NCBI GenBank assembly: GCA_003153125.1
Contig: PLWW01000123.1
Span: 10,463-71,221, forward strand
Source: Candidatus Dormiibacterota bacterium
Lineage (GTDB): Bacteria > Chloroflexota > Dormibacteria > Aeolococcales > Aeolococcaceae
DNA: 60,759 nt
Reading direction: 5' to 3'
The translations under genes and the position numbers were made by a program. The notes under the pieces are model-generated. The model was not told the origin of the DNA and searched no databases. It worked only from the letters and a program-made list of their open reading frames with translations. This document shows positions 52,404-58,116 of the stretch, in pieces (within the stretch, counting starts at the first letter, position 1; each line of letters opens with the position of its first letter).

Positions 52404-52937
52404 GTGCCGTCCCCCTCGCCGACCACCACCGCAGAAGAGCGCCGGCCGGCGGCGATCCTCGCCATCTACAGCTGGGACATGGTCCTCGCCCTGCTCGCCC
52501 TGCTCGGTGCCCTCGCGGCCTTCGGCGGGCAGGCCACGGTGGGGAGCAGGACGGTCAGCGTGAGCCTCGGCGAGCAGGTGCTCGCCGCCGTCGAGTCGGC
52601 GTCGTTCGCGGGGCTGCTGATCATCCTCGCGACGCTGCTGACACGGCGGCGGCGCTGGGTGCGGCGCGCTCAGATCGTCACCCTGGCGACTGCGATCGCG
52701 CTCGGGGCGGTGTCGCTGCTGCTCGCCGCCGTCGTCCCCGGCCAGGGCCTCCAGGCGAGTGCTCTGACCGCGCTCCTCGTTCTCGTGGTCGACGCCGCGG
52801 CGATCCTGGCGCTGACCGGGCAGAAGGTGATCGGCTGGTACGAGCAGGACGGCGCCATGCCCCGTTACATCAGCGGGACGATCGCCTTCTGGGCGATCAC
52901 CAGCGCGGTGCTCATCGTGCTCCAGACCCTGCGCTGA
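52404..52937 (+). CDS. Hypothetical membrane protein
   Basis: A 177-aa protein with five hydrophobic segments: MVLALLALLGALAAFGG, FAGLLIILATLLT, IVTLATAIALGAVSLLLAAVV, ALTALLVLVVDAAAILALTG and GTIAFWAITSAVLIVLQTL. No family is recognised. It converges with the single-domain response regulator gene. Confidence 0.72.
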   Translation: MPSPSPTTTAEERRPAAILAIYSWDMVLALLALLGALAAFGGQATVGSRTVSVSLGEQVLAAVESASFAGLLIILATLLTRRRRWVRRAQIVTLATAIALGAVSLLLAAVVPGQGLQASALTALLVLVVDAAAILALTGQKVIGWYEQDGAMPRYISGTIAFWAITSAVLIVLQTLR

Positions 52938-52946
52938 GGCGCTGGC

Positions 52947-53324
52947 TCAGATCATCGAGAGCAGGTCGCCGACCACGGCGACCAGGGCGTCCTCGTCCAG
53001 TGGCTTGGCGAGGACCGCGGCGGCGCCAAGCTGCAGCGCACGCTCCTTGGTCCGGACGTCCCCGGGCGGGGTGAGGATGACCACGCCCGCGCGGGGATGG
53101 TCGGGTGAGAAGCGGACCGCCTGGAAGTACTCGAGGCCGTCGACGTCGAGCGTGGTGTCGAGGAGGAGCAGGTCGGGCGGGTTGTCGTCCATCTGCTGGC
53201 GCAGCTCGCGCATCTGACGGACCCATTTGACCTCGTGGCCGGCCTCGATCAGCCGGCTCACCACCGGGGCGGCGACCGACGCCTGGTCTTCCGCGAGCAG
53301 GATCCGCGCGGGCATCCCCATCAC
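52947..53324 (-). CDS. Single-domain response regulator
   Basis: A 125-aa receiver domain without an output domain. It has ARILLAEDQASVAAPVVSRL, the probable phospho-Asp in DLLLLDTTLDVDGLEYF, and the Lys in AVLAKPLDED. The DTTLD context is unusual, because most receivers have D-x-x-M/L-P there. It may act in a phosphorelay or by direct protein binding. A GTG at 53324 follows a TACCAT element by 6 nt; the ATG at 53321 is the other option. Confidence 0.82.
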   Translation of the reverse strand: MMGMPARILLAEDQASVAAPVVSRLIEAGHEVKWVRQMRELRQQMDDNPPDLLLLDTTLDVDGLEYFQAVRFSPDHPRAGVVILTPPGDVRTKERALQLGAAAVLAKPLDEDALVAVVGDLLSMI

Positions 53325-53330
53325 CTGCGG

Positions 53331-53336
53331 ATGGTA
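53331..53336 (-). promoter_or_regulatory. -10 element (TACCAT), leaderless start
   Basis: It ends 6 nt before the GTG at 53324. Confidence 0.35.
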
Positions 53337-53396
53337 CCGAGCGGGACCTCTGCCCGGCTGCCGGTCCGGCCGTGCGGGGCGCCCCCGTCGAACGCG

Positions 53397-53402
53397 TACA
53401 CT
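53397..53402 (+). promoter_or_regulatory. -10 element (TACACT) for a coupled mini-ORF chain
   Basis: It ends 7 nt before an ATG at 53410 that opens a 14-codon frame upstream of the gene at 53480. Confidence 0.4.
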
Positions 53403-53409
53403 GACCTGG

Positions 53410-53454
53410 ATGCCCAGCACCGAGGCCAGGGTCGCCGCCGACATGACGACATGA
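53410..53454 (+). CDS. Candidate leaderless 14-aa upstream ORF
   Basis: The frame reads MPSTEARVAADMTT. It ends in ATGA overlap with a second 9-codon frame (53451-53480, MTAAPRPAA). That frame overlaps the ATG of the main gene (TGATG). The chain could carry ribosomes from the leaderless start to the main gene, which lacks its own Shine-Dalgarno. Confidence 0.35.
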   Translation: MPSTEARVAADMTT

Positions 53455-53479
53455 CGGCGGCGCCACGGCCAGCTGCCTG

Positions 53480-54088
53480 ATGCGCGGACCGCGTCTCCTG
53501 CAGCGCCTCCTCGGCGGCGGGGAGAAGGCGCGACGTCTCCCCAGAGAGGAGCGGCCCCACCTCGTCGACGCTCACACCCGCACCTTCTGGAGCCGCGGGG
53601 CGCTGTCCCCGGCGACCCTGGTGGAGAGCGACGAGGCCACGCCCGCGGCGGCGCGCGGGGGACGCGCCGCGACACTCGTCGCCGACCACCAGCGCGGCGC
53701 CACCGGCGCGGCGCTGCCGCGCGCCAACCCCGCCTTCAGCGAAGCGGTGTTCGTGGAGTTGATGCGCGCCCGCCAGTATCGGCGCGCGTTCTCCCTGCTC
53801 AGCCCCGAGTGCCAGCAGAGCTGGGGCTCGCTGCAGGCGTTCATCGATGCGCAGCGCATCGGTGCTCTCGCGCAGCTGCGCGGCGTGCAGGTGGACAGCG
53901 TGCGCCGGCTCGACAACTGGCGCGACCCGGACTCCGGAATGGTCCACGAGCACGCCGCTGAGCTTGATGTGCGCTACCAGATCGGCGACGCCACGCGCAC
54001 CATCAGCGTGCCACGCACAGTCCACCTCGTCGCCTTCGCGGGGGGGTGGCGATCGCTCTGTTACCCGACTGCGACGGGGTCGCACTGA
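53480..54088 (+). CDS. Hypothetical protein with NTF2-like C-terminal half
   Basis: A 202-aa soluble protein. The first 75 residues are basic and low in complexity. The rest (FVELMRARQYRRAFSLLSPECQQSWGSLQAFI, then strands ending GGWRSLCYP) looks like an NTF2-like/DUF4878 fold, which often binds small ligands. No catalytic residues are visible. It appears to be translated by coupling from two mini-ORFs. Confidence 0.65.
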   Translation: MRGPRLLQRLLGGGEKARRLPREERPHLVDAHTRTFWSRGALSPATLVESDEATPAAARGGRAATLVADHQRGATGAALPRANPAFSEAVFVELMRARQYRRAFSLLSPECQQSWGSLQAFIDAQRIGALAQLRGVQVDSVRRLDNWRDPDSGMVHEHAAELDVRYQIGDATRTISVPRTVHLVAFAGGWRSLCYPTATGSH

Positions 54089-54127
54089 GCTGCGTCCGCA
54101 TTGACCGGCGCGCCGCTTGAGCGTGCG

Positions 54128-54133
54128 TACAAT
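54128..54133 (+). promoter_or_regulatory. -10 element (TACAAT), leaderless start
   Basis: It ends 7 nt before the ATG at 54141. Confidence 0.5.
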
Positions 54134-54140
54134 GCAGCCG

Positions 54141-54560
54141 ATGGAGAACGCAGCGCTTCCGCAACGTGTCGGCGTCTCCGGCGACGCCGCCATTCCCCGG
54201 TATATGCCGGGGCCGCTCGAACGCACCGTCCTCGAGCTGCGCCGCATCGATCGGCACGCGGTCTGGCGCCGTCCGAGGGTGGGGCGCACCCGGTTGCTCC
54301 TGCGTGAGTCCGACGCGCTGATCGACCTCATCGAGCGCTGCCGTGAGCGCGAGGATCGGCTCCTGCCCACGCAGCTGTGGAGCGCTGTGGTGCGCTTCGT
54401 CGGAGCCCTCGACGGAGACCTCCGCGACGAGCTTGGCATCAACCGCGAGCCCGGCCATGTCGCCGACGTTGTCTTCGCCAGCCAGAGAAAGCTCCTCGAG
54501 CGCGCCCGCATGGAGCGCACCTCAGCGACCGGACGGATCATCCCGCTCTTTCGCGGCTAG
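54141..54560 (+). CDS. Hypothetical helical protein
   Basis: A 139-aa, charged, mostly helical protein. VLELRRIDRHAVWRR and ESDALIDLIERCREREDRLLP are amphipathic. No known domain is recognised, and there is no membrane segment or signal peptide. The ATG at 54141 is chosen over 54117 because the TACAAT element would place the transcript start on it. Confidence 0.65.
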   Translation: MENAALPQRVGVSGDAAIPRYMPGPLERTVLELRRIDRHAVWRRPRVGRTRLLLRESDALIDLIERCREREDRLLPTQLWSAVVRFVGALDGDLRDELGINREPGHVADVVFASQRKLLERARMERTSATGRIIPLFRG

Positions 54561-55470: not shown

Positions 55471-56844
55471 TCAGCCGCCGAGAAGCCCGGGGAACACGGT
55501 GGTGACCACCAGCGTGGTGGTGAGGACGGTCAGCACCGTCGCCAGGGTGACCGCGATGATGTTGTAGGCGAGCCCGTTGCAGTGCCGTCCCAGGAGCCTG
55601 CGGTCGTTGGCCAGGAGGATGATGAAGACGAGCAAGACGGGCAGGAGGATGCCGTCCAGGGTCTGCGTGCCGATGGCCACCCCTGCGATCGGCACACCCG
55701 GGATGAGCATGATCCCGGCCCCGATGGCGAGGATGCCGATGAACAGCGCGAAGAAGAGAGGGGCGTCGGCAAAGCTGCTCTGCACACTGCGCTCCGCGCC
55801 GAACGCCTCGCAGATGACGAACGCCGTGCTCAGGGGCAGGACCGCCGCGGCGAGCAGCGACGCCCCGACCAGTCCCACCGCGAACAGCTGCTGGGCGTGA
55901 ACGCCGACAAGCGGGCTCAGCGCCGACGCCGCCTGCTGCGCGGAGGCGACCCCACTGCCGGCGAGGCCGTGCGGGTACTCGACTGACGGCGAGAACAGCG
56001 TTGCCGCGGTGGTGATGACGATGAACATGGCCACGGTGACCGCGAAGAGGGAACCGCTGATGACGTCGAATCTGACCAGTTTGAGGTCGGCCTCGTGCGT
56101 GCCCTTGTCGACGATGGACGACTGTAGGAAGAGCTGCATATAGGGGGTGATCGAGGTGCCGATGAGCGCGATCAGGTCCACGAGGTAGGCGCCGGTGGGC
56201 ACCGACGACGGGTGGCCGAGGTTGGGCACCACGAGGTCGTGCCCGATCGCGGACCACTGCAGGTGCGGGGCCAGGAACGCGGTGATGATGTAGGACACGA
56301 ACGTGAGCCCCAGCGCGAGGAAGATGCGCTCCACGAGGCGGCGATTGCCGCGCATCACCACGACCCCGATGAGCGCCGCGGAGCCGATCACCGCCACCGG
56401 CAGTGGGACGCCGAGCAAGCCCAGGCCACCGGCAACCCCGGCGAACTCCGCGAGGGTGGTGCCACCGTTGGCGATGAGCACCACCACCGCAGCGAACAGC
56501 GTCCAGCGCACGCCGAAGCGCTCGCGGATGAGGTCCATGAGGCCCTTGCCCGTGACCGCGCCGAGGCGGGCGACCATCTCCTGGGTGATGATCAGCGCGA
56601 CGGCGATGGGCAGGAACGCCCAGAGCAGGCTGTAGCCGTACTTTGCGCCCGTGTTGCTGTAGGTGAAGACGCCGCCGGCGTCGTTGCCCGCGTTGGCGAC
56701 GATGATCCCCGGCCCGATGACGGCGAGGTATCGCCACAGCCCGGCGAACCGGCGCGGCCGGCCGCCGCGTCGCTCACGTCGCTGGGCGACGGCGTCCGCG
56801 GCTCGACGGCGCAGCGCGCGGGTCTGACGGGGGGCCGTCTTCAC
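55471..56844 (-). CDS. Nramp-related divalent metal transporter, possibly Mg2+ type
   Basis: A 457-aa LeuT-fold transporter with about 11 helices after a basic N-terminus. TM1 reads GPGIIVANAGNDAGGVFTYS and TM6 reads ALIGTSITPYMQLFLQSS. The canonical Nramp motifs DPGN (TM1) and MPH (TM6), which bind Mn/Fe, are absent. Loss of the MPH methionine is what I recall for the Nramp-related magnesium transporters. The gene follows a soluble MgtE-like protein by 18 nt, which supports a magnesium role. Confidence 0.85.
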   Translation of the reverse strand: MKTAPRQTRALRRRAADAVAQRRERRGGRPRRFAGLWRYLAVIGPGIIVANAGNDAGGVFTYSNTGAKYGYSLLWAFLPIAVALIITQEMVARLGAVTGKGLMDLIRERFGVRWTLFAAVVVLIANGGTTLAEFAGVAGGLGLLGVPLPVAVIGSAALIGVVVMRGNRRLVERIFLALGLTFVSYIITAFLAPHLQWSAIGHDLVVPNLGHPSSVPTGAYLVDLIALIGTSITPYMQLFLQSSIVDKGTHEADLKLVRFDVISGSLFAVTVAMFIVITTAATLFSPSVEYPHGLAGSGVASAQQAASALSPLVGVHAQQLFAVGLVGASLLAAAVLPLSTAFVICEAFGAERSVQSSFADAPLFFALFIGILAIGAGIMLIPGVPIAGVAIGTQTLDGILLPVLLVFIILLANDRRLLGRHCNGLAYNIIAVTLATVLTVLTTTLVVTTVFPGLLGG

Positions 56845-56862
56845 GTCCGCTCCGCGCGCTCA

Positions 56863-58116
56863 TCACAGGGCCCTCGCGCGCCGGCGAACTCCCGCCGGCA
56901 TCACCTCGTCCATGGCGTCGTCGATGGTGACGATGCCCTGCATCCGGTCGTCGTCGTCGACCACGGGCACCGCCAGGAGGTTGTACTTGGCGATCACGGC
57001 AGCGACGTCCTCCGGTCGGGCGTCGATGGGGACGGCGATCACGCGCTTGATCATGATGTCCGCGATGGCGGCGTCGGGCCGGGCGACGATGAGGTCGCGC
57101 AGGGAGAGGACCCCAAGCAGGCGCTCCTCCGCGTCGACCACGTAGACGTAGTAGATCGACTCGGCATCGGGCTCCAGCTCGCGCAGGCGGTCGATCGTCT
57201 GCTGGGCGGTGAGCGTCACGGGCACGGCCACGAACTCCGTCGTCATGAGACCGCCGGCGGTGTCGTCCTCGTAGCCGAGCAACTCCTCGACGTCCTCGGC
57301 CTCGTCGGCTTCCATCTTGGCGATGAGCTGCTCACGACGCTCCTCGGGGAGGTCGCCGAGCAGGTCGGCGGCCTCGTCGGGCGACATCGCCTCGAGGATG
57401 TCGGCGGCCCGATCGTCGTCGAGCCGGGCGAGGATCTGTGCCTGGACCTCCTCGGAGGACTCCTCGACCACGTCGGCGGCGATCTCGTCGTCGAGGGAGG
57501 CGAAGATGGCCGCCCGGTCGCGGCCGCCGAGCTGGCCGACGATCTCGGCGATGTCGGCAGGATGCATCTTGCTGAGCTTCTGGTGGCTGATCCGCAAGCG
57601 CATCGAGCGTTCGTCGCTGCGCACGGGGTCGACGGCGTCCCAGGAGATGAGCCGCTGCGGGAAGTCCCGCCCGACGAGGTGGGTGACGCGTCGGCCGACG
57701 CGTTCAACTCCGAGGCGTCGGAGGAGGCCGCGGGCGCCGATGTCGACGCCGACGACGAGGAGCTTGCCGTCCTGGTCCTGGAGCTGGAGGTCGTTGACGC
57801 GCACCACCCTGCGACCGTCGGTGTCGACAATCTGCTTGTCGAGGATGTCGCGCGCCAGCCAGATGTCCTCGTCGGTTCGCGGGTGCAGCTGCAGGGCCGA
57901 GGTGGGCACGTTGAGGCTCAATTCCCCGCTCTCGCCCGCCCTCACGGCACCCCAGTCGATCGTCGCGGGCAACTCCTTGCTCCGTCCCCTGATGGCGAGA
58001 GCGGTGACAACCGGGTAGGGCTCACCCATGCGCACGATGACGTCGCGGACAGACCCGACAGTCTTCTGGTCGATGTCGACCACGTCGGCGCGCAGGAAGT
58101 CGCTGAGAAAGATCAC
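56863..58116 (-). CDS. Membrane-less MgtE-like protein: PRC-type, MgtE-N and CBS domains
   Basis: A 417-aa soluble protein. The N-terminus has a PRC-barrel-like repeat (DFLRADVVDIDQKTVGSVRD and DILDKQIVDTDGRRVVRV). The middle is a full MgtE-N domain (SKMHPADIAEIVGQL through LLGDLPEERREQLI). The CBS pair follows, opened by YEDDTAGGLMTTEFVAV. It stops where the MgtE channel domain should begin. In MgtE these domains sense Mg2+ and gate the pore, so this may gate or regulate the Nramp-related transporter 18 nt downstream. The GTG at 58116 begins the conserved region; frames continuing further upstream run antisense to glpX. Confidence 0.88.
   Translation of the reverse strand: MIFLSDFLRADVVDIDQKTVGSVRDVIVRMGEPYPVVTALAIRGRSKELPATIDWGAVRAGESGELSLNVPTSALQLHPRTDEDIWLARDILDKQIVDTDGRRVVRVNDLQLQDQDGKLLVVGVDIGARGLLRRLGVERVGRRVTHLVGRDFPQRLISWDAVDPVRSDERSMRLRISHQKLSKMHPADIAEIVGQLGGRDRAAIFASLDDEIAADVVEESSEEVQAQILARLDDDRAADILEAMSPDEAADLLGDLPEERREQLIAKMEADEAEDVEELLGYEDDTAGGLMTTEFVAVPVTLTAQQTIDRLRELEPDAESIYYVYVVDAEERLLGVLSLRDLIVARPDAAIADIMIKRVIAVPIDARPEDVAAVIAKYNLLAVPVVDDDDRMQGIVTIDDAMDEVMPAGVRRRARAL

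What the first reader, a model, noticed from the sequence alone, without database searches (positions are those of the whole stretch)
55471..58116. Split magnesium module: Nramp-related transporter plus membrane-less MgtE sensor
The MgtE-like protein keeps the MgtE-N and CBS domains that sense Mg2+ but lacks the channel. The next gene, 18 nt downstream, is an Nramp homologue whose TM1 and TM6 lack the DPGN and MPH motifs needed for Mn/Fe. Together they look like a transporter whose gating domain is a separate protein, with an added PRC-like domain.
Basis: partly seen in the sequence, partly recalled or inferred. Interest (0 to 1): 0.62.

Follow-up and report, generated by a model that had tools for sequence, protein, structure and literature searches.

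The report
Magnesium transporter with separate sensor protein
Two neighbouring genes in a Dormibacteria genome encode a magnesium-type Nramp transporter and a soluble protein resembling the magnesium-sensing half of the MgtE channel; this pairing was reported in 2014 and is widespread, so this is an ordinary new member, but what the sensor does to the transporter is still untested.

Summary
On the minus strand, a 417-aa protein (two PRC-barrel domains, MgtE_N, a CBS pair, no membrane segment) is followed after 18 nt by a 457-aa Nramp homologue. The transporter belongs to the NRMT (Nramp-related Mg2+ transporter) clade: signature D-x-x-G / T-x-x-T, closest solved structure EleNRMT, and a branch separate from 15 classical Nramps (SH-aLRT 100). 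The gene order is conserved in 27 of 28 testable closest relatives and about 80% of named NRMT loci from many phyla, against 0 of 60 classical Nramps. The module is not new: Shin et al. 2014 (PMC4072509) reported MgtE-cytoplasmic-domain genes beside most nrmT genes and proposed feedback control. Here I add that the PRC pair is standard, that most Mg2+-site carboxylates are kept while the plug helix is replaced by a basic tail, that Coriobacteriia versions carry a membrane tail (often an MgtE-like domain without its pore motifs), and that Actinomycetes sensors sit beside a DUF1003 protein instead. Gating of the transporter by the sensor is inferred, not shown. New member of a known kind; interest 0.33.

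The parts
56863..58116 (-). Sensor gene (P0002): PRC-PRC-MgtE_N-CBS-CBS, 417 aa, soluble, upstream gene of the pair
   Evidence: AF2 pLDDT 88; Foldseek best hit MgtE cytosolic domain 2yvy, E 7e-22
57871..58116 (-). PRC-like beta-barrel 1 (about residues 1-82)
   Evidence: Pfam PF05239, two stretches; beta strands in model; conserved in relatives
57622..57870 (-). PRC-like beta-barrel 2 (about residues 83-165), with the conserved LDKQIVDxxGxxVVRVNDL stretch
   Evidence: Pfam best PRC stretch 88-128; alignments
57262..57567 (-). MgtE_N domain (residues 184-285), holding D215, D247 and D251 at the positions of TtMgtE E59, D91 and D95
   Evidence: alignment to TtMgtE; conservation
56902..57240 (-). 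CBS pair (residues 293-405), holding D400 and D403 at the positions of TtMgtE D247 and D250; N379 at D226; L380 at F227
56866..56901 (-). Basic C-terminal tail MPAGVRRRARAL in place of the MgtE plug helix and channel
56845..56862 (-). 18-nt intergenic spacer with GGAG Shine-Dalgarno-like motif
   Evidence: sequence
55471..56844 (-). Transporter gene (P0001): NRMT-type SLC11/Nramp protein, 457 aa
   Evidence: AF2 pLDDT 90 and pTM 0.88; Foldseek best hit EleNRMT 7qia, E 1.5e-24
56671..56682 (-). TM1 binding motif D-A-G-G (D55-G58), NRMT type DxxG
   Evidence: signature from PMC8806188
56146..56157 (-). TM6 binding motif T-S-I-T (T230-T233), NRMT type TxxA/T
   Evidence: signature from PMC8806188
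58117..58185 (.). 69-nt gap between the sensor gene and the divergent glpX-type fructose-1,6-bisphosphatase gene: no M-box riboswitch, and too short for one
   Evidence: sequence; Rfam, no match in window; glpX Pfam

Best explanation
A two-gene Mg2+ uptake module of the known nrmT type. P0001 is an NRMT carrying (partly hydrated) Mg2+, and perhaps Mn2+, down its gradient without proton coupling. P0002 is a detached MgtE cytosolic sensor: when cytosolic Mg2+ is high, Mg2+ fills the carboxylate sites between its N and CBS domains, the dimer compacts, and it acts at the cytoplasmic face of the membrane on the co-produced NRMT to slow uptake. The PRC pair and basic tail probably serve docking to transporter or membrane. 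Shown here: families, motifs, conserved linkage, retained Mg2+-site residues, missing plug and channel. Inferred: Mg2+ as substrate of this protein, Mg2+ binding by the sensor, physical contact, and inhibition as the outcome.
For: Transporter: PDB best hit EleNRMT 7qia E 4e-96 against 3e-25 or weaker for classical Nramps; clade separate from classical Nramps, SH-aLRT 100; DxxG/TxxT signature; fold best match EleNRMT. Linkage: 27 of 28 testable close relatives; 53 of 90 NRMT-range Nramps against 0 of 60 classical Nramps in 201 genomes of the phylum; sensor directly upstream in 53 and nearby in 7 of 75 testable named loci; start-stop overlaps or gaps of a few nt in most. Sensor: of TtMgtE Mg2+-site residues, D91 is D in 71/81, D95 in 79/81, D247 in 72/81, E59 acidic in 75/81, D250 acidic in 63/81; mutating those sites in TtMgtE stops closure or Mg2+ response (PMC5882242). 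Membrane-facing end: basic tail of net charge +2 or more in 57 of 75 soluble sensors against 13% of random 15-mers, replaced by a membrane segment or domain in Coriobacteriia. Own genome: one CorA, no MgtE channel, no other Nramp.
Against: Direct experiment on the A. capsulatum pair showed no effect of the MgtE-like protein on Mg2+ rescue, and that NrmT carried Mn2+ (PMC4072509). The plug helix, which carries Mg2+ sites E258/D259 and links sensor to pore in MgtE, is absent; D226 is mostly N; the ATP-stacking F227 is lost. Distances of the sensor and NRMT trees correlate only weakly (r 0.22 over 75 pairs, highest of 1000 shuffles 0.20). 15 of 75 testable NRMT loci have no sensor within the fetched flank. 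The window gene pair has no M-box riboswitch, the feature Shin et al. regard as the best mark of Mg2+ specificity.
Confidence: 0.62

Rival explanations
1. The transporter mainly imports Mn2+ (or several divalent ions), and the MgtE-like partner responds to Mn2+ or to general divalent load.
For: The A. capsulatum NrmT rescued a B. subtilis Mn2+ import mutant and only weakly a Mg2+ mutant (PMC4072509); EleNRMT transports Mn2+ too (PMC8806188); this is the only Nramp in the held genome.
Against: Soft-ligand methionine and the TM6 histidine are absent; the Acidobacteriaceae proteins are a different NRMT branch; the own genome has a ZnuA-type binding protein that could serve Mn2+/Zn2+ uptake.
Confidence: 0.2
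2. The sensor does not touch the transporter's activity but acts as a Mg2+-dependent adaptor or chaperone (insertion, stability, proteolysis), or sets expression.
For: PRC barrels are protein- or RNA-interaction folds in other proteins (general knowledge, e.g. RimM); the same sensor family sits beside a different membrane protein, DUF1003, in Actinomycetes; weak tree correlation; B. subtilis co-expression had no effect on transport.
Against: Retention of the Mg2+-switch carboxylates and the membrane-facing C-terminus are more simply read as a sensor acting at the membrane.
Confidence: 0.15
3. The linkage reflects inherited neighbourhood only and the sensor is a decaying MgtE.
For: Orphan sensors and orphan NRMTs exist, e.g. 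G103.
Against: Linkage persists across many phyla with conserved length, domains and residues, and classical Nramps never show it.
Confidence: 0.03

Closest known systems
NrmT/NRMT with adjacent MgtE-like gene (Shin et al. 2014, PMC4072509; e.g. Ca_c0685, Acp2976-Acp2977)
   Same: NRMT transporter plus a separate gene for an MgtE cytosolic-domain protein; same order (sensor first) as in A. capsulatum; same proposed role
   Different: No M-box riboswitch in the window; different phylum; the 2014 text does not mention the PRC domains
EleNRMT of Eggerthella lenta (PDB 7qia, PMC8806188)
   Same: About 42% identity, same DxxG signature and fold; nearest characterised transporter in sequence, fold and tree
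   Different: TM6 site T-x-x-T instead of T-x-x-A; longer basic N-terminus; in the Coriobacteriia sampled (not E. lenta itself) the partner sensor has a membrane tail
MgtE Mg2+ channel of Thermus thermophilus (2zy9, 2yvy)
   Same: MgtE_N and CBS domains, about 40% identity, most inter-domain Mg2+-site carboxylates retained
   Different: No plug helix, no channel; two N-terminal PRC domains added; acts, if at all, on an unrelated LeuT-fold transporter

Membership tests
NRMT (Nramp-related Mg2+ transporter) | Falls in the NRMT clade, apart from classical Mn/Fe Nramps | tested here: met
   ML tree, classical Nramps one side, SH-aLRT 100
NRMT (Nramp-related Mg2+ transporter) | DxxG in TM1 and TxxA/T in TM6 | tested here: met
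   NDAGG and TSIT (signature PMC8806188)
NRMT (Nramp-related Mg2+ transporter) | LeuT-type fold closest to EleNRMT | tested here: met
   AF2 model, Foldseek TMt 0.91 to 7qia
NRMT (Nramp-related Mg2+ transporter) | Transports Mg2+, not proton-coupled | not testable with these tools
   MPH histidine missing is consistent only
nrmT-linked MgtE-like sensor | Homologous to the MgtE cytosolic domain (MgtE_N + CBS pair), no channel domain | tested here: met
nrmT-linked MgtE-like sensor | Encoded next to an NRMT gene, conserved in relatives | tested here: met
nrmT-linked MgtE-like sensor | Mg2+-site carboxylates kept | tested here: met
   5 of 6 N/CBS-site positions acidic in P0002; D226 is N
nrmT-linked MgtE-like sensor | Regulates NRMT activity | not testable with these tools
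   only published test found was negative for Mg2+ rescue (PMC4072509)
M-box-regulated nrmT operons | M-box riboswitch upstream | tested here: not met
   no Rfam match; gap to the divergent gene is 69 nt
MgtE channel | Channel domain PF01769 and plug helix | tested here: not met
Classical MntH/Nramp | DPGN and MPH motifs, classical clade | tested here: not met

The most novel reading that the evidence does not exclude
The PRC-MgtE_N-CBS protein is a portable Mg2+ sensor subunit used by unrelated membrane partners: NRMT in most phyla, a DUF1003 two-helix protein in Actinomycetes, and in Coriobacteriia NRMT again but with the sensor tethered by a single helix or by an MgtE-like membrane domain that has lost its pore motifs, i.e. 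a former channel turned into a regulatory subunit of another transporter.
Probability: 0.4. Interest if true: 0.65.

Novelty: new member of a known kind. Interest (0 to 1): 0.33.

Why it matters
NRMTs are accepted Mg2+ importers, yet how their activity is limited once cytosolic Mg2+ is sufficient is unknown; MgtE solves this with an attached sensor. A conserved, separate MgtE-type sensor next to NRMT across many phyla makes the question directly testable. The window pair is a clean example: a single-copy module in a genome with no MgtE channel found. Family-level variants found on the way (basic tail, single helix, pore-motif-less MgtE membrane domain) give natural comparisons for a reconstitution experiment.

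Tried and rejected
Riboswitch control: no Rfam hit and no room for an M-box. Sigma-70 promoter and terminator scan: nothing found. Natural fusion of sensor and NRMT in one ORF: none seen among the fetched loci; among listed Nramp hits no open frame was long enough. Truncated or mis-assembled MgtE: rejected, relatives have the same length. Mirror-tree coevolution: weak and confounded by species history, not used as support. Complex prediction of sensor with transporter: not possible with the tools (single chains only).

Full report
What is there. Two minus-strand genes occupy the stated interval exactly. P0002 (58116-56863) comes first in transcription and P0001 (56844-55471) follows after 18 nt that include GGAG ahead of the GTG start. 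Upstream, 69 nt separate P0002 from a divergent glpX-type fructose-1,6-bisphosphatase gene; on the other side lies a convergent PfkB-family gene. Rfam finds no RNA family in the window, so M-box control, known for some relatives, is absent here.

The transporter. Pfam places P0001 in Nramp (E 1.9e-75). Against solved structures the best hit is EleNRMT, the Mg2+ transporter of Eggerthella lenta (E 4e-96); classical MntH and Nramp follow at E 3e-25 and weaker. PMC8806188 defines NRMTs by D-x-x-G in TM1 and T-x-x-A/T in TM6. P0001 has D55-A-G-G58 and T230-S-I-T233; all 15 classical Nramps taken from the same phylum have DPGN, and MPH or, in one, MPS. In a maximum-likelihood tree the classical proteins form one side of a branch with SH-aLRT 100 and P0001 lies with the NRMTs, in a loosely supported group with EleNRMT, Slackia and a Herpetosiphonaceae protein. 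The predicted fold matches EleNRMT best.

The partner. P0002 holds two PRC-like domains, MgtE_N and a CBS pair and then ends. Its C-terminal 230 residues match the cytosolic half of MgtE in sequence (about 40% identity) and in predicted fold (2yvy). Using published Mg2+ sites of Thermus MgtE (PMC5882242), E59, D91, D95, D247 and D250 correspond to D215, D247, D251, D400 and D403 of P0002; D226 is N379. Over 81 sensors, D91 is D in 71, D95 in 79, D247 in 72, E59 is acidic in 75, D250 acidic in 63, while D226 is mostly N. The ATP-stacking F227 and the plug helix with sites E258 and D259 are gone. Instead there is a short tail with net charge +2 or more in 57 of 75 cases, against 13% of random 15-mers of the same proteins.

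Linkage. Of the 29 closest homologues of P0002 fetched from 201 genomes of the phylum, one sits at a contig end and 27 of the other 28 are followed directly by an NRMT. In the same genomes, 0 of 60 listed classical Nramps but 53 of 90 listed NRMT-range Nramps lie beside such a sensor (the tool's lists are truncated, so these are samples). A scan of named genomes with an NRMT profile gave 80 loci: sensor directly upstream in 53, elsewhere in the locus in 7, absent in 15, undecidable at contig ends in 5; 49 of the 53 carry PRC-PRC-MgtE_N-CBS in full. The hosts include Clostridia, Desulfobacterota-type bacteria, Nitrospirota, Acidobacteriota, Chloroflexota and Coriobacteriia. Start-stop overlaps or very short gaps are common.

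Prior knowledge. Shin et al. 2014 (PMC4072509) saw that most nrmT loci include a gene for a protein homologous to the MgtE cytoplasmic domain, suggested feedback control, and tested one pair: the A. capsulatum protein had no added effect on Mg2+ rescue and its NrmT rescued Mn2+ import. The module is therefore known and its mechanism open. I found no mention of the PRC domains in that text, but that is an addition of detail.

Mechanism. The best reading is a Mg2+ uptake system whose feedback sensor is a separate protein. Families, linkage, retained switch residues and missing channel are shown. Mg2+ as substrate rests on homology to EleNRMT. Binding of Mg2+ by the sensor, contact with the transporter and inhibition are inferred. 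The only published experiment I found would not have shown an inhibitor of uptake at high Mg2+, since it scored rescue at limiting Mg2+ (my inference). Coevolution of the two trees is weak. In the own genome (86% complete) there is one CorA, no MgtE channel and no other Nramp, and one ZnuA-type metal-binding protein.

Variants found on the way. In Coriobacteriia the sensor continues past the CBS pair into either one hydrophobic helix or a domain of about 200 residues with several hydrophobic segments, and NRMT still follows. That domain matches the MgtE membrane domain in profile comparison (probability 98.6, E 8e-16; control against NRMT 0.2), but the GGNxGxQ and DPAxxSxPxxTTxxD stretches of the pore are missing. 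In a tree of the cytosolic part, the soluble sensors lie on one side and MgtE plus the Coriobacteriia forms on the other, with weak support (60), so the direction of this change is open. In Actinomycetes, 10 of 14 examined sensor loci have instead a small two-helix protein directly downstream; six checked are DUF1003. No paper in the library holds both DUF1003 and MgtE. These suggest a sensor that always works at the membrane but with exchangeable partners; this is the most novel reading and is not tested.

Score. As an item of this window it is a clean but ordinary member of a described family. The open question it belongs to is real, and family-level variants give it some added value.

Noticed in passing
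L085 2009-3907 (P0003); L150-L178: In Coriobacteriia the NRMT-linked PRC-MgtE_N-CBS sensor carries a C-terminal membrane domain related to the MgtE channel by profile comparison but lacking its pore motifs, a probable pseudo-channel; NRMT follows directly.
   Followed up: partly
L059 2558-3907, L137, L154, L157, L173: Some Coriobacteriia sensors (e.g. Slackia) end in a single hydrophobic helix of about 20 residues after the CBS pair, directly before NRMT.
   Followed up: partly
L194-L199, L202-L205: In Actinomycetes the same PRC-MgtE_N-CBS sensor is followed directly by a DUF1003 two-helix membrane protein instead of NRMT, in 10 of 14 loci; no paper in the library mentions both.
   Followed up: partly
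L141 838-2871 (-): Thermogemmatispora encodes a full-length protein PRC-PRC-MgtE_N-CBS plus an MgtE-like membrane domain, with no NRMT found within 1.5 kb.
   Followed up: partly
window 56770-56844: The transporter has an arginine-rich N-terminal extension predicted as a helix before TM1, also long in two Dormibacteria relatives (L003, L005); possible contact for the acidic sensor.
   Followed up: no
window 52404-54560: Three consecutive plus-strand ORFs (177, 202 and 147 aa) without any Pfam match.
   Followed up: no
L006 (G103): An orphan sensor with no NRMT beside it, while an NRMT lies on another contig of the same genome.
   Followed up: no
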